Positions 3,311 to 26,721 of a stretch of DNA of 49,200 nucleotides are shown piece by piece. The position numbers and the translations under genes are program-made. The notes beneath the pieces were generated by a model. It saw only the letters and a program-made list of their open reading frames with translations. It made no database searches and was not told where the DNA came from. Where the stretch lies: the NCBI GenBank assembly GCA_017533565.1, contig JAFXHU010000001.1, positions 1 through 49,200 on the forward strand, written 5' to 3'. Each line of letters begins with the position of its first letter. Position 1 is the first letter of the stretch. Origin of the DNA: Clostridia bacterium (GTDB lineage Bacteria > Bacillota > Clostridia > Oscillospirales > CAG-272).

Positions 3311-3351
3311 AGATGCGCTAAAAGACAGTCTAACGTCATACCAACTCAAAG

Positions 3352-3379: not shown

Positions 3380-3390
3380 ATACCTTAAAA

Positions 3391-3885
3391 TCAAAACTCT
3401 GACAAGGCGATTGCAACAATACATAAAACGATAATAAGGCTCGCAATTGCCAAAACAACCGAAAAAACAAACGCCGCAAGATTGTAAAGCGTATATTTGA
3501 TTTTCACCCGCTTTATTAACAACAAAGCAAGATAGGAAATGATAAACAACGGCACCAAAGCATAAATCGAATACCACGAAACAGTGTACAAGATATTTAA
3601 AAATGAATTCAATTCAACGTCACTTGTGTAAATAGCGATTGAAATCGGTACAATCACTGCCGCCAAAACTGTCAAAGCATTAAGCACCGTCAAATAAATT
3701 TTAAAGCCGTCAAGCTTAAAGCTTGCCTTAATATTTGCCTTACACTCCTTTAACACGGCTTTTTGCTCGCTCGGCTCGCAGTCGGAGAGCTTAACCGTCA
3801 ATCCGTCGGAAAGGCTTTTTCTCGCATCCGCATCCGCAACGCGAAAATAAAGCGCATTGTAAAGAAAAAAGTCGATTTTTCTCAT
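3391..3885 (-). CDS. Hypothetical three-TM membrane protein
   Basis: 164 residues, unrecognised family. The first 65 residues are soluble and charged. Three hydrophobic helices follow at about 68-87 (TVLNALTVLAAVIVPISIAI), 107-127 (YSIYALVPLFIISYLALLLI) and 137-162 (AAFVFSVVLAIASLIIVLCI). The start ATG sits behind a good GGAGGA ribosome site, with a consensus promoter and a strong terminator, so this is a single-gene transcription unit. Codon use is more AT-rich than the neighbouring housekeeping genes. No function is suggested. Confidence 0.75.
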   Translation of the reverse strand: MRKIDFFLYNALYFRVADADARKSLSDGLTVKLSDCEPSEQKAVLKECKANIKASFKLDGFKIYLTVLNALTVLAAVIVPISIAIYTSDVELNSFLNILYTVSWYSIYALVPLFIISYLALLLIKRVKIKYTLYNLAAFVFSVVLAIASLIIVLCIVAIALSEF

Positions 3886-3916
3886 AAAGTCCTCCCGAAT
3901 TATGATTTACGTAAAA

Positions 3917-3945
3917 ATTATAACAAAAAATCGGCTTTTCGTCAA
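3917..3945 (-). promoter_or_regulatory. Sigma-A promoter of the 3391-3885 gene
   Basis: On the minus strand: TTGACG, 17-bp spacer, TATAAT. It lies about 35 bp upstream of the start codon. Confidence 0.8.
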
Positions 3946-4100
3946 TGCTTTTCACCGTATCACCCTACGCGAGTTACCGATAGGGGTATTGGTTTTTTTA
4001 ATACACGGCTACCGAAATGCCCGCAATGCAACCGTGTAATATAGCGAAAGTCTAAAAAACAACCGCAAAGCACCGATACGGCAGGGAAGGCTTCGCAAAA

Positions 4101-4129
4101 CAAAAAGGGGAAAGCTTCGCTCTCCCCTT
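4101..4129 (-). terminator. Terminator of the 4134-4988 gene
   Basis: An 11-bp stem (AAGGGGAGAGC / GCTTTCCCCTT on the minus strand, one mismatch) with a 3-base loop and a T5 run, directly after the stop codon. Confidence 0.85.
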
Positions 4130-4133
4130 GCGC

Positions 4134-4988
4134 TTATTTGACTCTTACGGTGTATGCTCCGCCGCACACGCTCGCGTAAACGAGGTCGTTTTCAAGCTCC
4201 AAATCCCCGCCTGAAAAAAGCTCGCGCACCTCGGAGGGCGAAAGCTCCAGCTCGTGCAACACCCTTGTAAGCTGCTTTTTTATATTGCGGCTGCGGTGAG
4301 TTGAAATATGCACCCCGTCGCGCAAAATATTCGTTTCAAATTCGCCGCCCGCGGTCCTTTGCGACCGAATTTCAAGACCGCCCGAAAGCTCGATTTCCTC
4401 AAAATCAAGCTCCAAAACCGTCCTTTTAAGCTCAATACGGTATTCGTCGCGCCCCTCCGCGGTTTTGTGTATGCTGACTCTGCATTCGGGGTAATCGCCG
4501 TTAAAATCCGCACCCGAAACAATCTTTTCAATCTCGTCGGTCGGCACTTCAAAATACGAAAGCGTATCCGCCACGGTGCAAAGACCGCCCTGTGTCCGTC
4601 CGCGATATGTGCAAATCTCGTCGGGGTTTGTGGTCTGGTCGCGCATCCAGTCAAGCTCGGGCAGCCCCGCCTCGGCATAAACGTAAACCCTTACCCTGTT
4701 TTGCTCCATCGGGACGAGCCGTATGCTGTTTCCCGCGGAAAGGGTGGTAAAATCGCGGCGCGAAAAGCGCCCTACGTCGCGGACCCTGCATCTTGAAATG
4801 CTTACCGCGCGGTAAAGGAATATATTTGAAAAAATAATCGCCGCCACCATCGCCGCCATAAGCGGGTAGAGCCGCGCCATTCCCTCGGCATACGGGTTGT
4901 AAATTATTGCAAGCACGAGGATAATTACAAACGGCACCTCGGTAAGATACATATAAAACGGCGTTGAAAAAAAGGAAATTCGCTTCAT
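4134..4988 (-). CDS. Hypothetical protein with two N-terminal TM helices
   Basis: 284 residues. A TTG start 12 bases further upstream would add four residues, but the ribosome site GGAGGGG lies inside that extension, so the ATG at 4988 (MKRISFFSTPFY) is preferred. Two membrane helices (about 14-31 and 40-60) precede a roughly 220-residue cytoplasmic domain of alternating strands and charged loops, with no motif I recognise. The layout resembles membrane-tethered PH-like proteins, but that is only a guess. It is a single-gene unit with its own promoter and terminator. Confidence 0.7.
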   Translation of the reverse strand: MKRISFFSTPFYMYLTEVPFVIILVLAIIYNPYAEGMARLYPLMAAMVAAIIFSNIFLYRAVSISRCRVRDVGRFSRRDFTTLSAGNSIRLVPMEQNRVRVYVYAEAGLPELDWMRDQTTNPDEICTYRGRTQGGLCTVADTLSYFEVPTDEIEKIVSGADFNGDYPECRVSIHKTAEGRDEYRIELKRTVLELDFEEIELSGGLEIRSQRTAGGEFETNILRDGVHISTHRSRNIKKQLTRVLHELELSPSEVRELFSGGDLELENDLVYASVCGGAYTVRVK

Positions 4989-5013
4989 TTTCCCCTCCAA
5001 AAAAATCTACTCT

Positions 5014-5042
5014 ATTATAGCATATCCGTCTTAACTTTGCAA
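5014..5042 (-). promoter_or_regulatory. Sigma-A promoter of the 4134-4988 gene
   Basis: Minus strand: TTGCAA, 17-bp spacer ending in the extended -10 TGC, then TATAAT, about 26 bp before the start codon. Confidence 0.8.
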
Positions 5043-5124
5043 GAGGGGGACACGGGTAAATTTCGCGGCCCAAAAATCTTTACATTCTTGACACAAAGGA
5101 TACGGGGAGATGTAATAAGAATGT

Positions 5125-5158
5125 AAAAAAACAAAGCCCGTGAAAATCACAGGGCTTT
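5125..5158 (-). terminator. Terminator of the XRE regulator gene
   Basis: Hairpin AAAGCCC-GTGA / TCAC-GGGCTTT, followed on the minus strand by a T-rich run (the A tract 5125-5131). Confidence 0.8.
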
Positions 5159-5180
5159 GAAAAATTAAAATCCGATGCCT

Positions 5181-5789
5181 TTATTTTTTTAAAATCTTTT
5201 TGCACCAGGTGCGCTTATTGCATTTGGGGCACTTTAAATAACGGGTTGTTCCCGCGTGCATTGCATTAAGCGCCTGCGAGTAGGTAGGTATAATTTCCTC
5301 ACCGCAATTCTTGCACTTATATGCACCAACACTTACCTCAAGCTTTAATGCATAGAAGCAGGGAATCAGAAATACAACCACAATCCCGATAACTGCAACC
5401 GCCTGCCATATTCCCTCGGGAATTACAAATGCCGCAATCGCACACCCTGCCAAAAGACCGATTATGGATACAGTCATAATTGCCCACATCGCACTCCAAA
5501 TTGTCTTGTTTTTTCTCTCCAATTCCTTTGCCATTTCAAGCAAAAGCTCTTCGTTCCTTTTCTCGTTGTTTTCCATATTGATTTTCTCCCCGTTTAATAA
5601 ATCGTTTACACTGATGCAAAGAATGTCGCAAAGCTCAAGCATAATGGAGGTATCCGGCATTGCAATGCCTCTTTCCCACTTTGACACCGCCTTGTCGGTG
5701 ATGCCGAGCCTATCGGCAAGCTGCATCTGCGTCAAGCCTCTTTCCTTTCTTTGCTCTTGAATGAATTTTCCTATTTTTATTTGATCCAT
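5181..5789 (-). CDS. XRE-family regulator with TM pair and C-terminal zinc ribbon
   Basis: 202 residues from the ATG (MDQIKIGKF) that sits 6 bases after AGGAGG; an in-frame ATG 18 bases earlier overlaps the region before that site and is rejected. Residues 4-58 form a classic XRE helix-turn-helix (LTQMQLADRLGITDKAVSKWERG). After a charged linker there are two membrane helices (about 95-118 and 124-145). The end has two CxxC knuckles (CKNCGEE and CPKCNKR) that should bind zinc. Membrane-bound XRE proteins of this build are common in Firmicutes and usually act as local or autoregulated repressors. Repeats suitable for an operator lie just upstream of the promoter region. Confidence 0.85.
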   Translation of the reverse strand: MDQIKIGKFIQEQRKERGLTQMQLADRLGITDKAVSKWERGIAMPDTSIMLELCDILCISVNDLLNGEKINMENNEKRNEELLLEMAKELERKNKTIWSAMWAIMTVSIIGLLAGCAIAAFVIPEGIWQAVAVIGIVVVFLIPCFYALKLEVSVGAYKCKNCGEEIIPTYSQALNAMHAGTTRYLKCPKCNKRTWCKKILKK

Positions 5790-5833
5790 CGTAGCCTCCT
5801 TTCGCATACAGTATAACCGATATCGCGGAAAAA

Positions 5834-5876
5834 GTACACCTACCGTTGGTTTACCGGGGAAAAATAAACCCTACGG
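5834..5876 (-). promoter_or_regulatory. Possible operator repeats upstream of the XRE gene
   Basis: Two related blocks, GTACACCTACCG (5834-5845) and TAAACCCTACGG (5865-5876), lie upstream of a TATACT-like -10 at about 5810-5815 (minus strand). They could bind the XRE protein itself. The -35 is poor and the repeats are imperfect. Confidence 0.35.
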
Positions 5877-5922
5877 AGAAAAAATTTAATCAAAGCCTTT
5901 GCTTTTTTCTATAAATCGCGCC

Positions 5923-6573
5923 TTATTTAAGCCGTGCAAGCCTCGCGGTGTTTGCGATAACGATCAGGGTAGCTTCGGAGTCAAGCAGCTCCTCGGGGTT
6001 TACGTCAACGCTGACCCTGCCGTGCCTTTTGAGCGCGACGATATTTATGCCGTATTTTTTACGTAAATTAAGCTCGATAAGGTTTTTGCCGCACCACTCC
6101 GCCTTCACTCCGATTTCAACAATCGACACGTCCTGCGAAAGCGAAAGCATATCCACAAAGCCCGAGCTTAACAGATTTTTCGCAAGGCGTATTCCCGACT
6201 CGTTCTCGGGGAAAACCACCTGATCCGCGCCAACGCGAAGCAAAATTCTCTGGTGCATTTCGTTTGCGCATTTCGCGATAACCGTCTTGACGCCCGCCTC
6301 CTTCGATAGGGTGATTGCCATAACGCTCGCCTCGAGGTTGCCCGCCATACATACGATAACCGTGTCGATATTTCCGATACCGAGCCGTTCTATAACCTCC
6401 GCATCGGTTACGTCGGCGCATTTACAAACGGGAAGGTACGCCGCCGCGTCGTTGACGATTTTTTGATCGGTATCGACGGCAATAACCTCCATACCGTTTT
6501 CTACAAGCTCCCTTGCCACGGCTGCGCCGTATCTTCCAAGTCCAAAGACCGCATAGGTTTTGTTGATTTTCAT
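5923..6573 (-). CDS. ktrA: Potassium uptake regulatory subunit KtrA/TrkA
   Basis: 216 residues: an N-terminal RCK_N Rossmann domain with the GxGxxG nucleotide loop (GLGRYG, residues 11-16) and acidic VDTD at the end of the second strand, followed by an RCK_C/TrkA_C domain from about residue 135. In this family the ring binds ATP/ADP, often c-di-AMP in Firmicutes, and gates the partner channel. The ribosome site AAGGAG is 6-7 bases before ATG. The gene starts 12 bp after the stop of the channel gene and is cotranscribed with it. Length and motifs are normal. Confidence 0.93.
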   Translation of the reverse strand: MKINKTYAVFGLGRYGAAVARELVENGMEVIAVDTDQKIVNDAAAYLPVCKCADVTDAEVIERLGIGNIDTVIVCMAGNLEASVMAITLSKEAGVKTVIAKCANEMHQRILLRVGADQVVFPENESGIRLAKNLLSSGFVDMLSLSQDVSIVEIGVKAEWCGKNLIELNLRKKYGINIVALKRHGRVSVDVNPEELLDSEATLIVIANTARLARLK

Positions 6574-6585
6574 AGCAATTCTCCT

Positions 6586-7947
6586 TTATCCAATGCTGAT
6601 ATCCTCGGTCGGCTCGGATATCAGGTTTTGTGCTTCGCTCTTGCTTCCGAGTGCAATTGCAAGCGAAATCGGCCCGACTCTGCCGAAATACATCGTAACG
6701 GTAATTATAAGCTTACCAAATGTGCCAAGGCTCGGCGTAAGATTTCGTGAAAGTCCTACCGTTGCCGTCGCACTTACCGCCTCGTAAACCGCATCGACGG
6801 CAGACGCCTCGCCCGTAGCCAAAAGCAAAACGGTTGAAATTACGCAAATCGAAAGAAAGGCAACCGAGGCGGCAACCGCCTTTTTAACCGAGTCCTCCGA
6901 AATGCGGCGGGAAAACAGCGTCGCGCTGTTCTTGTTTTTTATAGTCGCAAGCGCCGAGCAGAAAAGCACGGCAACGGTCACGGTTTTCATACCTCCCGCA
7001 GTTCCGACGGGAGAGCCGCCCACCGCCATAAGAATAACCGAAACCGCCGCGGAGGCGTCCGTAAGATTTTCCTGTGCAACCGTGGCAAAGCCCGCCGTCC
7101 TCGTCGTAACCGACTGGAAAAACGAAACCTGTATTTTATCGAACAGCGACATATCCCCGATTGTAAGCGGATTATTGTACTCGAAAATGAAAATCAGCAC
7201 CCCGCCGATAAGGATAAGAGCCGCGGTAACCGAAATTGCAATCTTGCTTTGAAGCGAAAGGTGCTTAAGCACCCACTTTCTCCCCTGCGAGCGCATTTTT
7301 AAAATGCGAAGTATATCCCACCAAACGATGTAGCCGATGCCTCCGAGAATTATAAGAGTGGAGGTAACCGCGTTTACAAGCGGGTTTGTCGCATAGCTGC
7401 AAAGGCTGTCCTCTGCGATAATGTCGATTCCCGCGTTGCAAAAGGCGGAAACCGAATTAAATACCGATATCCAAATGCCCCTCGCGCCGAAATCGGGAAT
7501 GAAAACGAGCATATAAAGAATTGCGCCGATGCCCTCGACCGCCAGCGTGCCGAAAAGCACCTTCTTTACGAATTTCGTAAGACCCGCCATTGTGTTAAGG
7601 TTGAACGCATCCTGAATGAGAAGGCGGTCGCCGATGCCCATTTTCTTGTTTAAGAGGAGCATAAGCCCCGACATTATCGTAATAATACCGAGTCCGCCGA
7701 TTTGTATTAAAAGAAGGATTACGACCTGCCCGAAAATGCTCCAGGTGCTAACCGTCGGCAGGGTCACAAGCCCCGTTACGCAGGTTGACGTCGTTGCCGT
7801 AAACAGGGCGTCGAGATAGGGTACTGCCTCGCCGCTTGCCGAGCTAAAGGGCAGAGCAAGAAGCGCGCTTCCAACAAGAATGGTTACAAGGAAGCTTAAC
7901 AGTATAATTTGTGTTGTTGAAGGTGTGAATTTCTTTTTTTTGACCAT
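6586..7947 (-). CDS. ktrB: Potassium transporter KtrB/TrkH family
   Basis: 453 residues, an integral membrane protein made of four M1-P-M2 units. The four pore loops are visible: TTSTCVTGL (about 52-60), SAFCNAGID, TTRTAGFAT and GGSPVGTAGGMKT, each with the conserved filter glycine. It forms the K+ (possibly Na+-coupled) pore that KtrA gates at the cytoplasmic face. The start ATG follows AGAGGG. It heads a two-gene operon with ktrA and has a consensus promoter. I see no clear c-di-AMP riboswitch in the short leader. Confidence 0.93.
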   Translation of the reverse strand: MVKKKKFTPSTTQIILLSFLVTILVGSALLALPFSSASGEAVPYLDALFTATTSTCVTGLVTLPTVSTWSIFGQVVILLLIQIGGLGIITIMSGLMLLLNKKMGIGDRLLIQDAFNLNTMAGLTKFVKKVLFGTLAVEGIGAILYMLVFIPDFGARGIWISVFNSVSAFCNAGIDIIAEDSLCSYATNPLVNAVTSTLIILGGIGYIVWWDILRILKMRSQGRKWVLKHLSLQSKIAISVTAALILIGGVLIFIFEYNNPLTIGDMSLFDKIQVSFFQSVTTRTAGFATVAQENLTDASAAVSVILMAVGGSPVGTAGGMKTVTVAVLFCSALATIKNKNSATLFSRRISEDSVKKAVAASVAFLSICVISTVLLLATGEASAVDAVYEAVSATATVGLSRNLTPSLGTFGKLIITVTMYFGRVGPISLAIALGSKSEAQNLISEPTEDISIG

Positions 7948-18781: not shown

Positions 18782-19019
18782 AAAAATCCCCAACCCAAAA
18801 GGCATACTACCTGCCTTCGGGGTGAGGGTACGCAAAGCGTAATCCCGCACGGTTCCACCCGAGCGTTTTACTCATTCTATTCGGTTTTCATACCGTATTC
18901 TGCTTTTGCTTTAAAACACAGTACCGTATGCACGGGCGGTACCAAAGCAACCTCTTTCACCGCGCTCTCACCTGCCGCGACTCTCTGTAAACGACCCTTT
19001 GCCTTGACTTGTTCCGTTA
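18782..19019 (-). ncRNA. T-box riboswitch of thrS
   Basis: Between promoter and gene, the minus strand carries the T-box sequence GGGTGGAACCGTGCG (18860-18846), close to the consensus AGGGTGGNACCGCG. A strong terminator follows at once (arms CCCTCACCCCGAAGGCA and TGCCTTTTGGGTTGGGG, then ATTTTTG, 18829-18782). Upstream are an AGAGAG element typical of stem I and a GGTACCG stretch in which ACC could be the Thr specifier. Uncharged tRNA-Thr should pair with the T-box bulge and favour antitermination. No gene lies in 18658-19160 apart from this leader; 18658-18781 shows only a short CTTAACCC-type repeat. Confidence 0.88.
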
Positions 19020-19024
19020 AGAGC

Positions 19025-19053
19025 ATATTAGCACAAACTCCCCCGCTTGTCAA
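19025..19053 (-). promoter_or_regulatory. Promoter of the thrS T-box transcript
   Basis: Minus strand: TTGACA, 17 bp ending TGC, TAATAT. Confidence 0.85.
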
Positions 19054-19101
19054 GCGGTAAAACAAAAAAATCGCCCCAAAAATGAAAAACCCTCCCCACC
19101 G

Positions 19102-19130
19102 TTGACAAAATCTGCAAAATATGCTATAAT
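19102..19130 (+). promoter_or_regulatory. Promoter at the left edge of the Rhs island
   Basis: TTGACA, 17 bp ending TGC, TATAAT on the plus strand. The block CACCGTTGACAAAATC recurs at 20542, so the whole unit is duplicated. Confidence 0.88.
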
Positions 19131-19161
19131 AAATACATAAATCCCTCTGCGGAGGAAAAAT

Positions 19162-19206
19162 ATGAAAAGAAACCGTAACCGACAGGAAAAATATACCTTC
19201 TATTAG
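19162..19206 (+). CDS. 14-residue leader-type ORF
   Basis: ATG behind a good ribosome site (GGAGGAAAAAT) encodes MKRNRNRQEKYTFY and stops 3 bp before a terminator stem. The position between a perfect promoter and a terminator suggests an attenuator leader peptide or a small expressed RNA. The second copy of this unit (20545-20650) lacks an obvious ORF, which weakens the case. Confidence 0.4.
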   Translation: MKRNRNRQEKYTFY

Positions 19207-19208
19207 AT

Positions 19209-19244
19209 AAAGCGACCTCTTATGGGGTCGCTTTGCGCTTTTTT
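19209..19244 (+). terminator. Terminator after the leader ORF
   Basis: AAAGCGACC / GGTCGCTTT perfect 9-bp stem, then GCGCTTTTTT. The same stem recurs at 20618, and a related one at 24779. Confidence 0.85.
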
Positions 19245-19257
19245 AAAAAACGGTTAA

Positions 19258-19650
19258 AATTTCAGCTACGACGCGTGGGGCAAATGCACCGCCTACTATT
19301 ACAATGGCGGAGCAAGCACAAGCGCGACGAAAAACAATCTCCGCTACCGCGGCTACTACTACGATACCGACCTCGGGCTTTACTATCTGCAAAGCAGGTA
19401 TTACGATGCGAATACTTGTAGATTTATAAGCCCCGATGCAATAATGTCGGGCGCAAACGGAAGCCTTCACGGACTTAACCTCTACGTCTATTGCTTCAAC
19501 AATCCCATTAATATGACCGATAGCCAAGGTGATTGGCCAACTTGGAATGAGTTTTGGAACGAGGCAAAAAGAATTGTTAATGGGGTTATATCACAACGCT
19601 TTATCACCATTTCCTGTAATAATATACGATATGGCAAAGGAGCTTACACC
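19258..19650 (+). pseudogene. Rhs core C-terminal fragment A with short tip
   Basis: The open frame begins after a TAA at 19255 with no start codon and encodes the end of an Rhs repeat-associated core: SYDAWGKCTAYYYNGG, YYDTDLGLYYLQSRYYD, CRFISPDA, then LNLYVYCFNNPINMTDSQGDWP. Rhs cores form shells around a variable C-terminal toxin. Here only about 35 residues of tip remain, and they read in frame straight into the lipoprotein gene at 19651. About 160 bp (19265-19425) are nearly identical to 22052-22212. The N-terminal shell is absent, so this is a remnant or silent cassette. Confidence 0.75.
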
Positions 19651-20529
19651 ATGATTAAACGTATATGTGCTTTGATACTTTTGATATGCGTGCTTCTATT
19701 GACCTCTTGCGGGAAACAACAAGAAAAATGGGAAGGCGTAGCAAGGCAAGAATTATCAATATATACACCGAGCAATAATGTTGCACTTGTTATTGACAAC
19801 AAAACTTTTTATCTTAATAATTTTACGCTTGAAATTGATAATATGTCAGAAAAAGAGTATAGTTATAATTCGTACTATTTAGACGGCAGTGTCTTGTATT
19901 TTTCAACATCGTTAATGCATGGATTTGATTCTTATATGATTTCTTTATATTCGTGTGATTTAATCACGGGAGATTTGAATGTGGTTTTTCGCCGTGATGG
20001 ATACGATATGGGGGAAACGTATGTCAGCAAGGATAAGTTTTATATCAAGCATTTTACAAAATCAAACAGTGATAATAAAAATGTAACGGTTATAGACCTA
20101 TATAACATAAAAAGTGGTGATTATACAAGAATTGACAATGGTCCAAATGCAACTCTTGATATGTTTAAAGTCAACGTTGAAAAAGAAATGCGATATAGTG
20201 TTGAACTTTTAAGCAACAAAAATCAAAAGTATTTCAATATAGTAGATACCGAAACAAATTTGACAAAAATTGTTGATAATGAGTTTATGCTCCGCACTCC
20301 ATTCTCGGATATTTTTTCAAAATACGGTTACGCACCAAGAATGATAGATGTTGTTGAAGGGCATATTTTGATGGCTTTCTATTTGTCTTTTGGTAATTTT
20401 ATCGCATATAACAACACGTATGTAGTGTTTGAGTATGATTTTGAAAACGAAACACTTGAATATCAATTGCTTGCATTTCCCTATGATACCGTTAATTTGA
20501 AATTCCTGTATATTAATGGCGATAGTTAG
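19651..20529 (+). CDS. Lipoprotein of the Rhs island, possible immunity protein
   Basis: 292 residues. The ATG follows AGGAG by 8 bases, a more credible start than the upstream in-frame codons inside Rhs fragment A. It has a lipoprotein signal (MIKRICALILLICVLLLTSC, lipobox LTSC). The mature part has repeated strand motifs (YYLDGSVLYFS, DLITGDLNVVF, DLYNIKSGDYTRI) suggesting a beta-propeller-like fold. Base composition is AT-rich, unlike the host genes nearby. Position directly after an Rhs tip suggests an exported immunity or neutralising protein; that is inference. The family is unrecognised. Confidence 0.7.
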   Translation: MIKRICALILLICVLLLTSCGKQQEKWEGVARQELSIYTPSNNVALVIDNKTFYLNNFTLEIDNMSEKEYSYNSYYLDGSVLYFSTSLMHGFDSYMISLYSCDLITGDLNVVFRRDGYDMGETYVSKDKFYIKHFTKSNSDNKNVTVIDLYNIKSGDYTRIDNGPNATLDMFKVNVEKEMRYSVELLSNKNQKYFNIVDTETNLTKIVDNEFMLRTPFSDIFSKYGYAPRMIDVVEGHILMAFYLSFGNFIAYNNTYVVFEYDFENETLEYQLLAFPYDTVNLKFLYINGDS

Positions 20530-20544
20530 ATTACGCCCACACCG

Positions 20545-20573
20545 TTGACAAAATCAGCGCGGTGTGCTAAAAT
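20545..20573 (+). promoter_or_regulatory. Second island promoter
   Basis: TTGACA, 17 bp ending TGC, TAAAAT. Shares its upstream block with the promoter at 19102. Confidence 0.8.
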
Positions 20574-20617
20574 AAAAGTGTAAAGGCCCGCTAAAGGCAT
20601 AATTTAACAATATATCC

Positions 20618-20650
20618 AAAGCGACCTTTCGGGGTCGCTTTGCGGTTTTT
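20618..20650 (+). terminator. Second island terminator
   Basis: AAAGCGACC / GGTCGCTTT stem followed by GCGGTTTTT. With the promoter at 20545 it would define a transcript of about 70 nt. Confidence 0.8.
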
Positions 20651-20651
20651 A

Positions 20652-20819
20652 AAAGCAATTTCTTCTCGCGATTACTACTCTTCACCTTGGGAGAGAACGG
20701 CTGATTGGTTAGGTGGGGTAAATAGAGAAAACTATAAGCACAATTCTCTCGTTTGGGGCATAGCAGAAAATATTTTAGGACCTATCGTTATACCATTTTA
20801 CTATTGGTTTGGTTATTGA
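20652..20819 (+). pseudogene. Toxin-tail remnant B (YYSSPWE type)
   Basis: No start codon; the frame enters from the terminator and encodes DYYSSPWERTADWLGGVNR followed by a hydrophobic end (ILGPIVIPFYYWFGY). The motif YYSSPWE..AD..GGVNR recurs in remnant E at 23490, so both are ends of one toxin-domain family. It stops 10 bp before the lipoprotein gene at 20830, the usual toxin-immunity spacing. Confidence 0.6.
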
Positions 20820-20829
20820 GGTTTGAACT

Positions 20830-21249
20830 ATGAAAAAAACACTTTGTATAATCATTATTTTGACATGTTTTTTTATAGTGAGATGCGACAGTAAAACATA
20901 TCATTGGAGTTTTTATCAATCGCAATCCGAAATTATTAATTTGTCTATAATAGATGCGAACAATCCTTTTGAATTTACCACACTTAAAGAGATTTCAATG
21001 AGCTTAAAAAATACTTTGATTTCCGATATAGAAAAGCTTGAATACAAAAAGTATGGACCGAATTTGCACACAACACACGGTGTTTGCATACTGATTGAAT
21101 TTAAAAACGGAGAATACGACATCATATCACATTATGAGCCAATGCATGTGATGTGGGATTCAGAAAGCGGGAATTTAGATGCAAAAATTTCGTGGTTAAA
21201 ATGTGATAAAAAACAGTTTGACGCTTTGATTGACAAGTATATGCAGTAA
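20830..21249 (+). CDS. Single-domain immunity-like lipoprotein
   Basis: 139 residues. Lipoprotein-like signal (MKKTLCIIIILTCFFIVRC). The mature domain has the pattern I-I-L-x-I, a helix ending IEKLEY, an IEFKNGEYDI strand and a final KKQFDALIDKYMQ helix. The same order appears twice in the protein at 23658 (IEYRNP, NGDYELF, LLERYK), so they are one family. It follows toxin-tail B and precedes tail C. Predicted to sit outside the membrane and protect against a YYSSPWE-type toxin; not recognised as a named family. Confidence 0.7.
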   Translation: MKKTLCIIIILTCFFIVRCDSKTYHWSFYQSQSEIINLSIIDANNPFEFTTLKEISMSLKNTLISDIEKLEYKKYGPNLHTTHGVCILIEFKNGEYDIISHYEPMHVMWDSESGNLDAKISWLKCDKKQFDALIDKYMQ

Positions 21250-21258
21250 TTTGATTAA

Positions 21259-21432
21259 TCATTCAAATGCGGATTGTATGTAATATCTTTTTCAATTTTG
21301 GACATCAATCTCAAAAACGGTGAGTTAAAATATACCACAGGTTCTTCTGCACATATTTTATTTGGTGTTCATTATAGTGCAGGATTTAGTATCACAGAAT
21401 TTATACGTGGAGTGATAGATATATGGAAATGA
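21259..21432 (+). pseudogene. Toxin-tail remnant C
   Basis: Open frame without start codon encoding FKCGLYVISFSILDINLKN, then GSSAHILFGVHYSAGFSITE and a terminal IRGVIDIWK. The stop TGA lies inside the first codons of the next gene (10-bp overlap), as in coupled toxin-immunity pairs. The sequence differs from tails B and E. Probably the last 50-odd residues of another Rhs tip whose upstream part has been lost. Confidence 0.5.
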
Positions 21433-21809
21433 AATTTATCAAAAAATATTACAATGCGCTAATACTTGACAGTGCATATATCCTCCTTATGAATTTGCCG
21501 TTGACAATTATAAGCGCGATATGGCCGGACAATATCATAATAAGATGGATATTCATTTCATATTTCGTAGCTTCCGGTATTTTATACTATGCACTTTTCC
21601 AGATTTACAAAAAAGCAACCCCCGGCATGAAAATGTCAGGCTTAATAATCGTTAACAAGGACGGAAGTGTTCCCACTAAAAAAGCAATATTGAAAAGATT
21701 TTTGTATGCTTTTCCTTGGAGTATGGTATTTATTGTAAGCATTTTGACAGATTACGATCTTCAAAAGTGGGAAAAAAGAGTACTTGGAACTATATTGACA
21801 GAGAAATAA
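21423..21809 (+). CDS. RDD-family membrane protein
   Basis: 128 residues, about three membrane helices. The C-terminal half has the RDD signature KATPGMKMSGLIIVNKDG followed by KKAILKRFLYAF; the N-terminal half has the first helix NALILDSAYILLMNL. RDD proteins are small membrane proteins, some linked to ion transport. In this setting it directly follows, and overlaps, a toxin tail, so it may serve as a membrane immunity protein; that is inference. Confidence 0.75.
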   Translation: MEMKFIKKYYNALILDSAYILLMNLPLTIISAIWPDNIIIRWIFISYFVASGILYYALFQIYKKATPGMKMSGLIIVNKDGSVPTKKAILKRFLYAFPWSMVFIVSILTDYDLQKWEKRVLGTILTEK

Positions 21810-21820
21810 TTACCGCGTGG

Positions 21821-22726
21821 GTGACGCACTACGACACTCTTGGAAATCCGTTAACCTATTACGACGGCACGACTTGTACTTGGCAAGGAAGACAGCTTGT
21901 AGGTGCGGTAAAGGGAACGAATACAATGTCCTTTACTTACAACGATAACGGTCTTCGTACGTCTAAAACGGTAAACGGCGTTACAACGGAGTATTATTGG
22001 AACGGAAATTTGCTTGCCGCGGAAAAGTCACCGTATTATTTGATTATATACAACTACGACGCGTGGGGCAAATGCACTGCAAGCTATTACAACGGCGGGG
22101 CAAGCACAAGCGCGACGAAAAACAATCTCTGCTACCGTAGCTACTACTACGATACCGACCTCGGGCTTTACTATCTGCAAAGCAGGTATTACGATGCGAA
22201 TACTTGTAGATTTATAAACGCCGACAGCTATATCTCCACCGGTCAGGGAATCCTCGGTTATAATATGTTTGCTTATTGCGGAAATAATCCGGTGAATTAC
22301 GTCGATTATGCGGGCGACATACCCGGAATGGTTATGGCTTCGCTATATGAAAATAGCAGTGGTACACGTTCGGATTTTTCAATTATTAACAAAAAGTGGG
22401 AAAAAGCATTATTTGCGGCAAACAATGCGCATATTGAGGTTTTTGGCGAGCACAAAATAACATTTGATAGAGTTTTGATAGAAGATTTTGATGCAATTAC
22501 TCTTGATATATTCTTTTACCTTATATATCAACGCAGTTTAGATATGGCAAGAAATACGGAAAATTCCACGCAAGATTTGATGACACTTGATCATATTAGG
22601 TGGGAAACTATGTGGCATTTGGCTGTATCATTTTTACCGAATACAGACGAAATTAATTTGAATTTTTCTGAAACAAAATTTGGAATGATAAAGCGTGGAT
22701 TTAAAGCAATTTTGGGAGGGAGGTAA
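21821..22726 (+). CDS. Rhs core C-terminal fragment D with complete tip domain
   Basis: The frame reads in from the RDD gene; Rhs homology begins at THYDTLGNPLTYYDG near 21824 and no ribosome site supports any start. It covers the last Rhs repeats (FTYNDNGLRTSKTVNG, YYWNGNLLAAEK) and the core end (YYDTDLGLYYLQSRYYD, MFAYCGNNPVNYVDYAGD). An AT-rich tip of about 135 residues follows (IINKKWEKALFAANNAHIEVF, DAITLDIFFYLIYQRS, TLDHIRWETMWHL), unrecognised by me, with DHIRW as a possible catalytic or structural motif. The stop is 2 bp before the next ATG. It is probably an orphan Rhs-CT cassette that becomes active only after recombination with a full Rhs gene. Confidence 0.7.
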   Translation: MTHYDTLGNPLTYYDGTTCTWQGRQLVGAVKGTNTMSFTYNDNGLRTSKTVNGVTTEYYWNGNLLAAEKSPYYLIIYNYDAWGKCTASYYNGGASTSATKNNLCYRSYYYDTDLGLYYLQSRYYDANTCRFINADSYISTGQGILGYNMFAYCGNNPVNYVDYAGDIPGMVMASLYENSSGTRSDFSIINKKWEKALFAANNAHIEVFGEHKITFDRVLIEDFDAITLDIFFYLIYQRSLDMARNTENSTQDLMTLDHIRWETMWHLAVSFLPNTDEINLNFSETKFGMIKRGFKAILGGR

Positions 22727-22728
22727 TA

Positions 22729-23433
22729 ATGTATAATACTTTCAAAATATACCCGAATTCCCGATTTAAAAAGTGCTTAATCGCGTTTGCAATAGTAATA
22801 GTATCGCTTATTCTGCTTGCAGGTATTGCTATAACTATTATACTGATAACAACACCCGACTATCCGGTTCTCACAAATTCAATAAATGATTACAGTGCGA
22901 AGGGTTATTACTTTGATAATAGGATTTTTATGCCTACGCTCCCCGAAAATGCGGAGGTTATATCATATTACAGCTACAACCACTGGAACGAGGATTACGA
23001 CCAATATCTTGAATTGAAATTTAACACCAAAGAGGAAATGGAAGAATACTTGAACGTCTTGTTTGACTACTCGCAATCTTATATAGAGCAAGTAGGTTTC
23101 CAAATGTGTCCCGAAAATAACGATTGGTTTGTGCGCGAAACAAATCCGTATAACTCGTCATTTGTGGACTGTTACAGCAAAGCAGAGCATTATTGGCGTG
23201 GAGAGCAAGCCTATACCGGATATCGTGTAGATGGTTATATCAGATGTCGATATAACGTTATATCTTATTCGTATGATTGCTTGACGGTAATTCAATCAAG
23301 CTGTGAAGGCGGATTTGAACGCAAGGACAATAAGAATTATACACCTAAATTTTTAGAGCGCTTTGGAATTACCTACGGTTCTGTGTCACACGAAATTGCC
23401 ATTGAATTTGATTTCAGTAACAAAGACAAATAA
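22729..23433 (+). CDS. TM-anchored protein paired with Rhs tip D, probable immunity
   Basis: 234 residues. A basic N-terminus and one membrane helix (about 17-42, IAFAIVIVSLILLAGIAITI) anchor an extracytoplasmic domain rich in aromatic residues (SYYSYNHWNEDYDQYLELKF, four Cys). A GGAGGT ribosome site overlaps the end of the Rhs fragment and the gap is 2 bp, a tightly coupled toxin-immunity layout. Family not recognised. An anchored outward-facing domain suggests the toxin acts in the cell envelope. Confidence 0.7.
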   Translation: MYNTFKIYPNSRFKKCLIAFAIVIVSLILLAGIAITIILITTPDYPVLTNSINDYSAKGYYFDNRIFMPTLPENAEVISYYSYNHWNEDYDQYLELKFNTKEEMEEYLNVLFDYSQSYIEQVGFQMCPENNDWFVRETNPYNSSFVDCYSKAEHYWRGEQAYTGYRVDGYIRCRYNVISYSYDCLTVIQSSCEGGFERKDNKNYTPKFLERFGITYGSVSHEIAIEFDFSNKDK

Positions 23434-23435
23434 TT

Positions 23436-23648
23436 GGATTTGCTTTACTATCTGTAACGGCATATTATTTAGATTTAGATGGAGCTTTGCCATACGATTA
23501 TTATTCTTCTCCATGGGAGTCGCAAGCGGATGAGTACGGAGGGGTGAATCGAGGAGTATTTTCCGATCCATGGACTGAAAGCGATGGATATTTTATTCAA
23601 CTATCAAAGAAATTGTTTATTCATAGTTTAAAAAAGATATTCGGGTAG
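23436..23648 (+). pseudogene. Toxin-tail remnant E (YYSSPWE type)
   Basis: Open frame without start: GFALLSVTAYYLDLDGALPY, then DYYSSPWESQADEYGGVNR and a tail ending KKLFIHSLKKIFG. It shares DYYSSPWE..AD..GGVNR with remnant B. The frame differs from the preceding gene and begins right at its stop, so it was joined there by recombination. The stop TAG lies 9 bp before the next gene's ATG. Confidence 0.6.
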
Positions 23649-23657
23649 GAGATGGTA

Positions 23658-24470
23658 ATGAAAATAATCAAGAAATTTACATGCGCTTTTGTCATATTTT
23701 CTCTATTGTTTACGGTTTCTTGTGTTAAAAAAGATTTTTCGCTTTTATACGGAGAGGAGCAAATTCTATTCATTGAAATAGTAGAAGAACGATTTGATTA
23801 CTTGAGCAACGAACATTCGCAAAAGACGTTAATACAAATACAAGATTTTAAAAAATTCATACAAGAGTTAGAAAAAATTGAATACCGTAACCCGAGCGTT
23901 ATCGGTGAACAAAAACAATTTTTGGGTGCTACTTTTTTGGCAGTAAAAGTTTTTTATAGTAACGGAGATTACGAACTGTTTTCATCAACCACAAAATTGA
24001 CGTACAAAAAATCCGATAACAGCGGCTATAAATATGCTGCTATGGGTTATTTTGACAGTAAACAATTTTATGTTTTTTTGAATTTGTATTTATCAACAGT
24101 CAACAATCCTACATTTCCTTTTCTACATAGCGAAGATATGATAAGCAGTATTGAAATAGTCGATTCGTATTATTTGAAAGGAACGGGGCAAGTTCAAAAC
24201 GTTCACTCAAAAATTCAAGACGTTGGTGTGTTTTTGTCCGACCTGAACTCTATTTCTTATTCGTGTGCTACGAATAATTTTGGGGAATACAGATATGTTG
24301 AGCAAGGAGTGAAGGCTATCAAAATCGGTTACGTTAACGGGGATTACGAGCTGTTTACGAATGATACGAGAGATATTTTTATTTCTCACACAAATTCATA
24401 TTGCGGAAATTGTTACATCGGACAGTTCGACACCGTTGGCTTTAACGCCTTGCTTGAAAGGTACAAATAA
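23658..24470 (+). CDS. Two-domain immunity-like lipoprotein
   Basis: 270 residues. Two in-frame ATGs are present; the second, 6 bases after AGGAG, is chosen because the first abuts the ribosome site. Lipobox FTVSC. The mature part is a tandem duplication: each half runs I-E-I-V, a helix, IEYRNP or ISYSCA, a strand with NGDYELF (exact in both halves) and an end FDSKQFY or FDTVGFNALLERYK. One copy of this domain forms the protein at 20830. It directly follows toxin-tail E. Probably an exported immunity protein for the YYSSPWE toxin family. Confidence 0.72.
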   Translation: MKIIKKFTCAFVIFSLLFTVSCVKKDFSLLYGEEQILFIEIVEERFDYLSNEHSQKTLIQIQDFKKFIQELEKIEYRNPSVIGEQKQFLGATFLAVKVFYSNGDYELFSSTTKLTYKKSDNSGYKYAAMGYFDSKQFYVFLNLYLSTVNNPTFPFLHSEDMISSIEIVDSYYLKGTGQVQNVHSKIQDVGVFLSDLNSISYSCATNNFGEYRYVEQGVKAIKIGYVNGDYELFTNDTRDIFISHTNSYCGNCYIGQFDTVGFNALLERYK

Positions 24471-24473
24471 TAA

Positions 24474-24989
24474 ATGAAACGGGTGGTAATTATTAAAAAG
24501 GTTTTGTTTTACGCCATCCTTGCTTTTTGGTGTATATTTATTGTGAGCTGTATTATTGTTGGAAAAGAAAGTTCAATTGTATTATCAATTTATGCTATAT
24601 TTTTGCAATTTGAAATTAAAAACGCTTTTAAACCCATAAAAAACAGTTGGTTAATAACACCCAAAAGATGGTTTTACCCGAATCACTTAAAGTACTACCG
24701 TATTTTGATGATTATATTTTTGCTTTTATCGCTTCGATTGCGGTTTTATCATTCTTTATATAGCAATGCTTCCATTCCGCGACCCCGAAAAATCGGGGTC
24801 GCTTTATATGCAAAATACGAAAACCCCCTTGCTTTGCAAGGGGGCAATTTTTTCGGGAATTTACGCCTGCATTGGCGTTTTGGGAGCTTCTCGATTACAC
24901 GTCCCAATTATACTTTGGCTTTGACGCGGAAATTTTCTCCTCGGGCGGCTTCTTTTCGGGCGGGTACTTGTATTTCGCACTCGAAATAG
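24474..24989 (+). CDS. Small membrane protein whose 3' end runs through a terminator
   Basis: Up to about residue 105 this is a plausible small membrane protein (VLFYAILAFWCIFIVSCIIV, LMIIFLLLSLRLRF). After that the frame passes through a GC-rich terminator hairpin (24779-24802) and into the 3' end of the convergent VirD4-type gene. The last 65 residues are therefore not credible coding sequence, and the original stop was probably lost. The ribosome site is weak (GAAAGG, about 12 bases). Likely a truncated island gene. Confidence 0.4.
   Translation: MKRVVIIKKVLFYAILAFWCIFIVSCIIVGKESSIVLSIYAIFLQFEIKNAFKPIKNSWLITPKRWFYPNHLKYYRILMIIFLLLSLRLRFYHSLYSNASIPRPRKIGVALYAKYENPLALQGGNFFGNLRLHWRFGSFSITRPNYTLALTRKFSPRAASFRAGTCISHSK
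24779..24806 (+). terminator. Island terminator
   Basis: GCGACCCCGA / TCGGGGTCGC perfect 10-bp stem with an AAAA loop, then TTTAT. Related to the GCGACC stems at 19209 and 20618. Confidence 0.75.
24824..24851. terminator. Bidirectional terminator at the end of the Rhs island
   Basis: CCCCCTTGC / GCAAGGGGG perfect 9-bp stem with a 3-base loop. A T6 run follows on the plus strand and TTTT on the minus strand, so it can serve the island and the convergent VirD4-type gene. Confidence 0.8.
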
Positions 24990-26721
24990 GCTCGTTGTTA
25001 TACGGAGCAAACAGGTCAAGTCCGTCCGATTTTGCATACGGGAAATCGCCGTTTTCGGTCATAATATAGCTTCTGATATACTGTGCCATAATGACGGGTG
25101 TGTAAATACGCTTTATGTACATTTCACCGGGGCGAATGATGTCAAGCACCGTCGGGGGAACGAGAGGCACCTCTATAATATCGTTCACCTCGTTGTCAAG
25201 CTCCGCACGAAGCGAGGGCACGTATATCTTTCCGCACTCGGTTGAAAACGTCTCTCTTGTCTTTATGTTCTGCGAGCCGAGGAATATCTGTGCGTTACAG
25301 TTGTCGCGAATGATAATCGCGGTGTCGGGACTGTAAACGAGGTCAAGCTGTGCATAGGACTGAAGCACGAGATGGAACCAGATATTTCTTGAACGCGAGG
25401 TCGCAATCTTGTTCTCAAAGTCCTTGATTTTCGGAACGTTACCGAACTCGTCAAGAAGGAAATGCATCGGGCGCGTCATTTCGCCGTTCTCCGCCTTTTC
25501 AAGCATAATCTTGTAAACCCAGTCTATGAAAAGACCCGCAATCTTAAAATCGCTCTTTTCGTAATCTCTCGTGATAACGAAGATAGCAAACGGCTTTCCG
25601 TCGTCGATATCGAGGTCAACCGTGTTGCCCGTCGTCATTGAAAGAATATGCCCCTGGAACCAATCCGAAATAGCGCCGTCGAAAACACCGCAGTAGGATT
25701 TCATCGTGTTGGATGCGTTTGCAAGAGCCGTACACATAAGACGGAGCGTGTCCTCGCTTCTGCCCTGTGTCATCGGATGCTCGTAAAGCGTTTCGTCACC
25801 CGCCAAAATCGGGGTCTTAAGCGCCATATAAATATCGCGAATGGTCTTAAAGGTCATATTGTCGGCGGTAAAGTTCATCTCGGGGTTCATCGCGTCCTCG
25901 AGCATCATATGCAAAAGACCGCGGAGCAGGTCCTGCGCTCCGTATTCCCAGGAGGGGTCCTTTGTTGACTGTACCTGAATCATCATATTCGTGAACTGGT
26001 TGATAAGGTCGTCAACCCTCGCTGCAACCGCGTCCTTCTCACCCTGAATATAAAGGTCAACCGCGCGCCTGTCGGGGAATGCCATTCCGCGGTATGCGTA
26101 ATACTCGTCGCCGAATGCCGACGGGGGTGCCATTCTCGTAAGGGTTGGCGAAAGCTGTCCCGTCTTTTTCGTTACGCCCTTTCCGATTGTCTTGAGCTTC
26201 ATCTGCTCGTCGTAAAGCTCGATAAGCGGATTCCACCTGTCGCTTCTTTTTATGTTCTTAAAGTTAAGAACGTAAAGGCGGTAGCCCTGGTCGGCAAGGT
26301 GCTGTGCATTCCTGTCAAAAAGCTCGCCCTTCGGGTCGGTTACGAAAAGGTTCGGCTTGTTCTTCTGCTTTGCAATTGCGCGAAGCTGCGGCTCGACACA
26401 GCCCGTCGTCTTACCCGAGCCTGTGCCTCCGATATAAAGCTCATGCGAGTTGGGAAGATAGTAAAAGCGAAGCCTTGCGCCCTCCCTCTCCTTTTCGGTA
26501 AGCGTTGCGTATCTCTCCTGTGAGCAGGAGCTGCCGTCCTTTAAAAGATAGTCGGAGGAGAAGGGAAAGCCCTTTATCTCTCTTTCCTCAAGCTCGTCGT
26601 AAAAGTAGCGCTCTACCTTGTGCGATGCTCCAACCTCGTCAAAGCGAAGCTTTCCCGAGCCGCCGTAAATCTTGTCTATGTAATTTTGCGTGCGCTGCTC
26701 GCGATAGGATAATCTTTTCAT
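24895..26721 (-). CDS. VirD4/TraG-type coupling ATPase, isolated
   Basis: 608 residues. Walker A GGTGSGKTT (98-106), the type IV coupling motif VTDPKGELFD shortly after, Walker B HFLLDEFGNVPKI and a sensor-like LQSYAQLDLVY. Such hexameric ATPases bring DNA or protein substrates to a type IV secretion channel. Unlike classical members it has no N-terminal membrane helix. No relaxase, VirB4, VirB6 or other conjugation gene is in the window. A GGAGG site precedes the ATG, 9 bp after the upstream gene's stop. Base use matches the host, so it has been resident a long time or came from a relative. Confidence 0.85.
   Translation of the reverse strand: MKRLSYREQRTQNYIDKIYGGSGKLRFDEVGASHKVERYFYDELEEREIKGFPFSSDYLLKDGSSCSQERYATLTEKEREGARLRFYYLPNSHELYIGGTGSGKTTGCVEPQLRAIAKQKNKPNLFVTDPKGELFDRNAQHLADQGYRLYVLNFKNIKRSDRWNPLIELYDEQMKLKTIGKGVTKKTGQLSPTLTRMAPPSAFGDEYYAYRGMAFPDRRAVDLYIQGEKDAVAARVDDLINQFTNMMIQVQSTKDPSWEYGAQDLLRGLLHMMLEDAMNPEMNFTADNMTFKTIRDIYMALKTPILAGDETLYEHPMTQGRSEDTLRLMCTALANASNTMKSYCGVFDGAISDWFQGHILSMTTGNTVDLDIDDGKPFAIFVITRDYEKSDFKIAGLFIDWVYKIMLEKAENGEMTRPMHFLLDEFGNVPKIKDFENKIATSRSRNIWFHLVLQSYAQLDLVYSPDTAIIIRDNCNAQIFLGSQNIKTRETFSTECGKIYVPSLRAELDNEVNDIIEVPLVPPTVLDIIRPGEMYIKRIYTPVIMAQYIRSYIMTENGDFPYAKSDGLDLFAPYNNEPISSAKYKYPPEKKPPEEKISASKPKYNWDV

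What the first reader, a model, noticed from the sequence alone, without database searches (positions are those of the whole stretch)
19080..24890. Mosaic array of Rhs C-terminal cassettes with immunity genes, no full Rhs gene
The island holds two Rhs core ends (19258 and 21821) nearly identical over about 160 bp but with different tips, plus three isolated toxin-tail remnants. Each is followed within 0-10 bp by a different small exported or membrane protein. Cores have host-like GC, whereas tips and immunity-like genes are AT-rich. This looks like a store of silent toxin-immunity modules in a Gram-positive, able to recombine into a full Rhs gene through the shared core end. Orphan rhs/cdi cassettes are known in Gram-negatives; this arrangement, mostly with envelope-facing immunity proteins, may be less described.
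Basis: partly seen in the sequence, partly recalled or inferred. Interest (0 to 1): 0.72.

Follow-up and report, generated by a model that had tools for sequence, protein, structure and literature searches.

The report
Decaying Rhs toxin–immunity gene island
A gut Clostridia genome carries a row of mostly intact genes that look like protection against neighbours' toxins, beside broken pieces of Rhs toxin genes and with rhs-type promoters at its start, so it looks more like a kept shield than a store of weapons.

Summary
Window 19,094-24,806 is an AT-rich chromosomal island with two truncated Rhs core ends (174 nt, 93% identical), four or five tips or tip remnants, and six downstream ORFs for exported- or membrane-type proteins. 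One full-length rhs (1,782 aa) and a third orphan lie on contig C13 of the same MAG. Core ends are mosaic: cassette 1 matches cassette 3 at 70/70 sites left of the tip junction, but main rhs at 90/96 and cassette 3 at 49/93 to the right, so tips have been exchanged at the core end. The 'silent toxin store' reading is only partly right: all tips but one are truncated, two keeping just the tail of an HExGH zincin-like toxin without that motif, and the first two units have near-consensus promoters. Relatives show similar orphan arrays, promoters at the truncation point (12 of 76 units, two of them from this genome; 0.4 expected) and mostly membrane or exported following genes (87 of 130). I read it as an rhs locus decaying into an immunity-expression array: a new variant of the known orphan-Rhs/polyimmunity theme. 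Expression and protection are untested.

The parts
19094..19250 (+). rhs-type leader 1: promoter-like TTGACA-17-TATAAT (19102-19130), mini-ORF MKRNRNRQEKYTFY*, terminator-like hairpin (19208-19235)
   Evidence: 19102-19245 is 89% identical to the sequence just upstream of the full rhs on C13; promoter 12/12 and hairpin; RNA fold z -3.6
19263..19530 (+). Rhs core end 1 (truncated, no delivery body)
   Evidence: TIGR03696 over cut-off; 88% identical to main rhs over 285 nt; mosaic
19531..19650 (+). tip 1 remnant: first 40 aa only, runs in frame into the next ORF
   Evidence: no homologue in the fetched loci
19651..20529 (+). immunity-like lipoprotein 1 (292 aa)
   Evidence: lipobox by rule; 26% identical to the lipoprotein after the C13 orphan, E 1e-5
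20537..20654 (+). rhs-type leader 2: promoter-like TTGACA-17-TAAAAT (20545-20573) and terminator-like hairpin (20617-20642), no mini-ORF
   Evidence: repeats D3 and D4
20655..20819 (+). tip 2 remnant: C-terminal tail of an HExGH zincin-like toxin, HExGH part missing
   Evidence: profile match E 3e-8 to positions 118-166 of 171 only; alignment
20830..21249 (+). immunity-like lipoprotein 2 (139 aa)
   Evidence: phmmer in the local set: L121 9e-5, lipoprotein 5 0.002, L150 0.005 and 0.016; the L150 5413 lipoprotein follows an HExGH tip
21250..21432 (+). possible tip 2b remnant (about 57 aa), unproven
   Evidence: open frame only; no homologue found
21423..21809 (+). RDD-family membrane protein, immunity-like by position
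   Evidence: Pfam RDD 2e-9, over cut-off
21821..22315 (+). Rhs core end 3 (truncated)
   Evidence: TIGR03696 4.7e-16; 97% over 242 nt and 90% over 176 nt to main rhs with internal deletions
22316..22726 (+). tip 3: the only tip of near-complete length (136 aa)
   Evidence: related to the 145-aa tip in G044/L083, E 8e-7
22729..23433 (+). immunity-like membrane-anchored protein 4 (234 aa)
   Evidence: related to the ORF directly after the L083 tip, E 4e-26
23434..23648 (+). tip 4 remnant: C-terminal tail of an HExGH zincin-like toxin
   Evidence: profile E 1e-6, positions 116-144 of 171 only
23652..24470 (+). immunity-like lipoprotein 5 (272 aa), two copies of the lipoprotein-2 domain
   Evidence: two matches to the lipoprotein-2 profile, 4.5e-8 and 1.7e-5; lipoprotein 5 was not a seed; phmmer to the lipoprotein after the L148 HExGH tip 0.003
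24474..24770 (+). membrane-protein-like ORF 6, possibly truncated at its 3' end
   Evidence: hydropathy rule; the ORF runs into the hairpin
24775..24806 (+). 3' terminator-like hairpin GCGACCCCGAAAAATCGGGGTCGC
   Evidence: three places in the genome at up to 2 mismatches: here and on both sides of the C13 orphan

Best explanation
The island is a former rhs locus (or tandem rhs loci) that lost its delivery bodies through deletions joining the rhs promoter/leader to the 3' end of the gene, and is decaying into an immunity-expression array. Each unit was once core end + toxin tip + cognate immunity gene. Recombination at the shared core end swapped tips (shown by mosaicism). Later deletions removed most toxin domains but spared the immunity genes, whose ribosome-binding sites lie in the last codons of the tips (read by eye). 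Two promoters (19102, 20545) probably transcribe the row up to the hairpin at 24779. Most toxin fragments lack a good start signal, so mainly exported lipoproteins and membrane proteins would be made; these would protect the cell surface against kin or competitors whose full Rhs proteins carry the same tips, among them an HExGH zincin-like peptidase. Shown: anatomy, mosaicism, pairing with homologous toxin-immunity pairs for some units, promoter-like sequences. Inferred: expression, envelope action of the toxins, protection, selection.
For: Full rhs with the same leader and core ends in the same genome. Mosaic core end of cassette 1: max-chi 0 of 20,000 permutations against cassette 3 and 33 of 20,000 against the C13 orphan. 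Pairing: tip 3 (E 8e-7) and the gene after it (E 4e-26) recur in the same order in L083; tip 4 and lipoprotein 5 both point to the L148 pair (8e-6 and 0.003). The five intact HExGH tips found by motif (L096, L133, L142, L148, L160) are each followed by a protein with a lipobox, and L133 carries its tip on at least 1,372 aa of Rhs. Promoter matches 12/12 at 19102 and 11/12 at 20545. Over the fetched loci, promoters of at least 11/12 lie at the truncation junction in 12 of 76 orphan units (109 before dropping edge, short-upstream and duplicate units); shuffles predict 0.4, the reverse strand gives 1, matched places inside full rhs genes 2.1%. Without this genome: 10 of 73. A strong SD plus start in the Rhs frame: 5 of 36 short orphans against 7 of 13 full genes. 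L150 is a partly parallel island: two short HExGH tip frames and four lipoproteins of the lipoprotein-2 family.
Against: No expression data. The leaders contain terminator-like hairpins that could stop transcription. Promoter-like sites over 18,900-25,000 as a whole are no more frequent than in shuffles (27 against 24.2, sd 5.9), and one 11/12 site lies inside the lipoprotein-1 ORF (19793). The junction rate (12/76) is about that of ordinary genes with an upstream gap (29/228), 64 of 76 units lack such a promoter, and the class sample shows none (0 of 28). With a looser SD rule the start-signal contrast shrinks (14 of 36 against 10 of 13). Retention: 4 of 5 tips truncated against 0 of 6 following genes gives p 0.015, but counting ORF 6 as truncated gives 0.08, and adding the C13 orphan, whose lipoprotein ORF has an in-frame TGA, gives 0.29: not significant. 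In the fetched loci units with tips under 100 aa are followed by a soluble protein in 9 of 14 cases. Lipoprotein-2 relatives also follow a non-HExGH tip in L121, and the profile was seeded with L121, L148 and L150, so those matches are by construction. The broken L150 tips keep HExGH. Window immunity genes are rare in relatives: lipoprotein 1 in none of the 68 other genus genomes, lipoprotein 5 weakly in 2 other genomes of the 146 searched in the family.
Confidence: 0.55

Rival explanations
1. Silent cassette store: the units are kept chiefly as toxin-tip donors that recombine into the full rhs through the core end.
For: Shared core ends of 88-97% identity with the full gene and mosaic junctions. 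Tip 3 is near full length. In G044 five orphans share one promoter-core junction but carry different tips or tip remnants. In the fetched loci most tips are of full length (126 of 149 at least 100 aa).
Against: In the window all tips but tip 3 are truncated, and the two zincin-like remnants lack HExGH. The first two units have near-consensus promoter sites.
Confidence: 0.22
2. Neutral wreckage: repeated tip displacement left dead fragments with no present function; the following ORFs survive by chance or recency.
For: In-frame stop in the C13 orphan's lipoprotein ORF, possible truncation of ORF 6, 23 of 149 core ends in the fetched loci with tips under 100 aa, retention contrast not significant when these are counted.
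Against: Five following ORFs undisrupted over 128-292 codons next to mostly truncated tips; promoter- and terminator-like sites at the unit ends; a partly parallel island in L150.
Confidence: 0.2
3. Assembly artefact: the MAG assembler joined repeats from different rhs copies.
For: It is a MAG, 77% complete, 39 contigs, and the copies are similar.
Against: The longest exact stretches shared between copies are 64-110 nt, or under 20, shorter than the largest k-mers usual in metagenome assembly (recalled, not from a call); similar arrays occur in other assemblies.
Confidence: 0.03

Closest known systems
Orphan rhs-CT/rhsI and cdiA-CT/cdiI modules of Gram-negatives (PMC3150448, PMC3967940; passages seen)
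   Same: Core-end fragment plus different tip plus immunity gene; toxin fragment lacking initiation signals; orphan immunity expressed in E. coli EC93. Recombination of the Salmonella orphan into the main gene is cited in passages of PMC5361080 and PMC9484751.
   Different: [quoted passage not shown] Here the array is on another contig with rhs-type promoters of its own, tips are mostly truncated and the following genes are envelope-type.
Salmonella rhs orphan with internal promoters (PMC7043789; passages seen)
   Same: Promoters within the rhs reading frames drive main and orphan C-terminal transcripts.
   Different: There functional toxin is reported and acts as a toxin-antitoxin pair; here tips are mostly truncated and nothing was measured.
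Polyimmunity loci and proteins (PMC3482391, section 38 read in full)
   Same: Co-oriented row of different immunity genes; lipoprotein 5 is a two-domain immunity-like protein.
   Different: Polyimmunity loci are said never to be interrupted by toxin genes or cassettes; here remnants and one near-complete tip lie between the genes. That survey names few non-cytoplasmic immunity proteins (two two-TM families, some LD-peptidase immunities, one lipoprotein, Imm65).
Vibrio cholerae T6SS immunity arrays formed by effector displacement (PMC5361080; passages seen)
   Same: Old immunity genes kept after the effector was replaced.
   Different: Another secretion system; here the delivery gene at the locus is gone as well.
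S. aureus TspA/TsaI and streptococcal TelC/TipC arrays (PMC9484751; passages seen)
   Same: Gram-positive, membrane or lipoprotein immunity in multi-copy arrays, tspA fragments inside the tsaI array.
   Different: T7SS toxins; paralogous immunity copies rather than several unrelated families; no Rhs core ends.
Streptococcus suis WapA orphans (PMC12704120; passages seen)
   Same: Gram-positive Rhs/WapA with truncated duplications carrying different toxin/immunity pairs.
   Different: They lie at the full wapA locus.

Membership tests
Rhs orphan toxin-immunity cassette | Truncated Rhs core end recognised by the Rhs_assc_core profile | tested here: met
Rhs orphan toxin-immunity cassette | Core end shared with a full-length rhs of the same genome, followed by a different tip | tested here: met
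   no match between main tip and window tips, apart from the first residues after the core in cassette 1
Rhs orphan toxin-immunity cassette | Tip followed at once by its cognate immunity gene | tested here: inconclusive
   Pairing recurs elsewhere for tip 3/protein 4 (strong) and for the HExGH tails/lipoproteins 2 and 5 (weaker); not shown for lipoprotein 1, the RDD protein and ORF 6
Rhs orphan toxin-immunity cassette | Toxin fragment lacks translation initiation | tested here: inconclusive
   Crude SD rule over short orphans: 5 of 36 against 7 of 13 full genes, or 14 of 36 against 10 of 13 when looser
[quoted passage not shown]
   Island on C1; full rhs on C13; a draft assembly, but different genes flank the two
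Rhs orphan toxin-immunity cassette | Tip is toxic and immunity protein neutralises it | not testable with these tools
   needs expression assays
Polyimmunity locus | Four or more co-oriented immunity genes | tested here: inconclusive
   Six co-oriented ORFs in immunity position, three of them with a pairing elsewhere
Polyimmunity locus | No intervening toxin genes or cassettes | tested here: not met
   Two core ends, one near-complete tip and tip remnants; therefore not filed as a polyimmunity locus
HExxH zincin (metallopeptidase) toxin | HExxH motif plus a later conserved glutamate (third ligand, recalled) | tested here: not met
   Window remnants keep the invariant PWExxA segment but not HExGH; five intact relatives have both; no significant Pfam, NCBIfam or PDB sequence match; fold not predicted

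The most novel reading that the evidence does not exclude
In gut Clostridia, orphan Rhs cassettes are not silent stores but self-contained immunity transcription units: a near-consensus sigma-A-type promoter sits where the Rhs body is missing, the toxin tip is transcribed without being translated (or is eroded), and a mostly envelope-facing immunity protein is made. Such units scatter over the chromosome, exchange tips through the core end and mature into polyimmunity loci; the window is an intermediate. It would imply that many Rhs toxins of this clade act at the target cell surface.
Probability: 0.35. Interest if true: 0.62.

Novelty: new variant of a known kind. Interest (0 to 1): 0.45.

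Why it matters
It looks like an intermediate between two described locus types, orphan toxin cassettes and polyimmunity arrays, and suggests how the second may arise: promoter kept, delivery body and toxin deleted, immunity retained. It also marks a group of gut Clostridia in which most genes next to Rhs tips encode membrane or exported proteins by a simple rule (87 of 130), unlike the mostly cytoplasmic immunity described in 2012. That makes a testable prediction: many of their Rhs toxins act on the envelope.

Tried and rejected
Leader mini-ORF as a conserved regulator: the RNRQEKYT codon pattern was found in none of the other 68 genus genomes nor of the other 393 order genomes, and by eye the sequences upstream of 16 other full Rhs frames show no similar leader, though some have other short ORFs. 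So it is species-level; attenuation remains a guess.

Mobile island: no tRNA and no Rfam hit in the window; flanks are thrS (named by eye) and a T4SS coupling-protein-like gene, then ORFs that look like housekeeping genes (by eye). Not supported; recombinase genes were not searched for by family.

GCGACC..GGTCGC hairpins as recombination sites: with AA/TT flanks they occur at 4 places in the genome, 3 of them at rhs leaders, and the 3' hairpin brackets the C13 orphan. Suggestive only; they also read as terminators.

Homology of protein 4 to L150 ORFs: suspected by eye, not supported. Tip 2b to the main-tip family: no match. Class-level replication of promoter capping: 0 of 28 at 11/12 (set B; only 2 of them short orphans). 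In set A the middle group (61-1000 aa of core left) has 7 of 49 at 11/12, so the effect is not confined to short orphans.

The exported-protein rule is a hydropathy threshold, not SignalP, and its control ORFs may include further immunity genes. 19 of 149 core ends had no usable next ORF and were left out; three loci from other phyla (L166, L171, L172) were left out of that count. No Gram-negative control was made.

Literature: searches. None of the listings that I saw named orphan Rhs cassettes with a promoter at the truncation in Clostridia; the library holds only open-licence PMC papers.

Full report
Setting. The window is bases 1-49,200 of contig C1 of a 1.71-Mb MAG, 39 contigs, 77% complete. 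Of 68 named loci found with the Rhs core end most are labelled Clostridia, Oscillospiraceae or related, and 32 carry a ruminant gut site in the title. The host is very probably a gut Clostridia bacterium; its own name was not given.

What is there. Between thrS (minus strand, named by eye) and a T4SS coupling-protein-like gene (24,895-26,721, minus; PF02534 4e-32) lies an AT-rich block. In order on the plus strand: leader 1; core end 1 with a 40-aa tip start that runs in frame into a lipoprotein ORF; leader 2; tip-2 tail; lipoprotein 2; a short ORF that may be another tail; an RDD membrane protein; core end 3 with a 136-aa tip; a membrane-anchored protein; tip-4 tail; lipoprotein 5; ORF 6; a terminator-like hairpin. 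GC is 0.46-0.49 in the core ends, 0.29-0.39 in tips and following genes, and 0.50-0.54 in the two flanking genes.

The rest of the genome. The core-end protein finds five matches at four loci: two in the window, one full rhs at C13:26,602-31,950 (1,782 aa, apparent signal peptide, followed by a protein with a hydrophobic N-terminus), and one orphan at C13:59,567-60,325 after metK (named by eye). The full gene is preceded by a 144-nt leader 89% identical to window 19,102-19,245: promoter-like site, Shine-Dalgarno, a 14-codon mini-ORF and a hairpin. The longest exact match between leader 1 and the main copy is 87 nt. Window leader 2 and the C13 orphan have related promoter regions but no mini-ORF. 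The simplest reading of leader 1 is an internal deletion that joined the rhs leader to the rhs 3' end.

Recombination. Aligning the four core ends shows patchwork. In the 70 nt before the tip junction cassette 1 equals cassette 3 at 70/70 and the C13 orphan at 69/70, but main rhs at only 58/70. After the junction it equals main rhs at 90/96, and cassette 3 and the C13 orphan at 49/93 each. The maximum-chi-square statistic was reached in 0 of 20,000 permutations for cassette 3 against main, and in 33 of 20,000 for the C13 orphan against main (only cassette 1 was tested).

Toxins and immunity. Tip 3 is related to a tip in G044/L083 (E 8e-7), and the gene after it to the gene after that tip (E 4e-26), so they travel as a pair. 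Tips 2 and 4 match only the C-terminal third of a zincin-like family (profile positions 118-166 and 116-144 of 171). Five intact members (L096, L133, L142, L148, L160) share invariant H-E-x-G-H and PWExxA. Each is followed by a protein with a lipobox (read by eye), and in L133 the tip sits on at least 1,372 aa of Rhs. No Pfam, NCBIfam or PDB sequence match was significant, so 'zincin-like' rests on the motif. Lipoprotein 5 holds two copies of the lipoprotein-2 domain. Their outside relatives are weaker: phmmer 9e-5 (L121), 0.003 (L148), 0.005 and 0.016 (L150); the profile was seeded with three of these, so its strong scores for them are by construction. The L148 and L150 (5413) lipoproteins follow HExGH tips, the L121 one another tip. 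L150 is a partly parallel island: two short HExGH tip frames (98 and 115 aa, motif kept) and four lipoproteins of this family.

Distribution. Lipoprotein 1 has no match in the 68 other genus genomes; lipoprotein 5 has weak ones in 2 other genomes of the 146 searched in the family. Rhs core ends occur in 29 of 69 genus genomes, 28 over the cut-off, often as arrays of short frames (8 matches in G044, 7 over the cut-off; 3 on one contig of G046), and in 89 of 293 genomes sampled from the class. One search lists 151 core ends in the fetched loci; in the 149 median tip length is 176 aa and 23 tips are under 100 aa. The ORF directly after the tip is exported or membrane by the hydropathy rule in 87 of 130 cases, against 125 of 306 other ORFs of the same loci (Fisher p 7e-7); in the class sample it is 16 of 31. 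After tips under 100 aa, however, 9 of 14 are soluble. A 2012 survey says that all but few immunity proteins are cytoplasmic and names a single lipoprotein and a few TM or secreted exceptions (PMC3482391 section 38).

Promoters at the truncation. In G044 five orphans share a TTGACA-17-TATACT element that ends at the Rhs junction, with five different tips or remnants of which one (185 aa) is of full length. Anchored on the start of Rhs homology, promoter-like sites of at least 11/12 lie within -170..+30 in 12 of 76 units (109 before dropping edge, short-upstream and duplicate units); shuffles predict 0.4 and the reverse strand gives 1. Perfect 12/12 sites: 6, with 0.04 expected. At matched positions inside full rhs genes the rates are 2.1% and 0.1%. 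Two of the 12 are from this genome; without it, 10 of 73. Cassette 3 of the window has none. Ordinary genes with an upstream gap have 29 of 228 and 9 of 228, so orphans are equipped about like ordinary genes. In a core-anchored count 10 of 36 short orphans, 7 of 49 middle ones and 0 of 21 full genes reach 11/12; the class sample has 0 of 28. A strong SD with a start codon is found for 5 of 36 short orphan frames, 2 of them before the core (one of these inside a -35 box), against 7 of 13 full genes; with a looser rule 14 of 36 against 10 of 13. In the window itself promoter-like sites as a whole are not enriched (27 against 24.2 in shuffles), terminator-like ones are (11 against 4.5, sd 2.1).

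Reading. The island is best seen as a relic rhs locus in which delivery body and toxins are being lost while surface-type immunity genes and promoters remain. Shown: anatomy, shared leader and core, mosaicism, homologous pairs for some units, promoter-like sites. Inferred: transcription, surface action, protection, selection. The retention contrast is suggestive only: p 0.015 becomes 0.08 if ORF 6 counts as truncated and 0.29 with the C13 orphan added.

Against known systems. Orphan modules (PMC3150448, PMC3967940), orphan promoters in Salmonella (PMC7043789), immunity arrays by displacement in Vibrio (PMC5361080), lipoprotein or membrane immunity arrays in Gram-positives (PMC9484751) and WapA orphans (PMC12704120) are each known; of these I saw passages. 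The combination here (Rhs, separate locus with rhs-type leaders, eroded tips between envelope-type genes) is a variant. It fails the 'never interrupted by toxin genes or cassettes' criterion of polyimmunity loci, so it is not filed there.

Limits. One MAG, no strains, no expression data, no structure prediction, no Gram-negative control (one search failed). E-values of script searches are for small local sets.

Noticed in passing
window 668-2755 (+): ORF of 695 aa with a hydrophobic segment, Pro/Glu-rich repeats and a C-terminal segment matching ribosomal protein L15/L27A (PF00828, 1.5e-14): an odd fusion.
   Followed up: partly
window 45241-46233 (+): TIR-domain protein (PF13676, 1.1e-15; weak PADLOC TIR/ThsB-like hits), possibly defence-related.
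   Followed up: no
window 19160-19235; C13 leader of the full rhs: Mini-ORF MKRNRNRQEKYTFY* ending just before a terminator-like hairpin, identical in two copies; its codon pattern was found in none of the other 393 order genomes searched. Looks like a leader-peptide attenuator.
   Followed up: partly
G000 C13:59345-59368 and 61188-61211; window 24779-24802: The same 24-nt hairpin, with no other copy in the genome at up to 2 mismatches, brackets the C13 orphan and ends the window island.
   Followed up: partly
L083 (G044:C5:1-20000): Array of eight core-end matches; five share one promoter-core junction but carry different tips or tip remnants and different downstream genes.
   Followed up: partly
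L172, frame 177-6894: A Bacteroidetes Rhs-like protein also carries the HEYGH tip motif (profile E 3e-6), so the toxin family may cross phyla.
   Followed up: no
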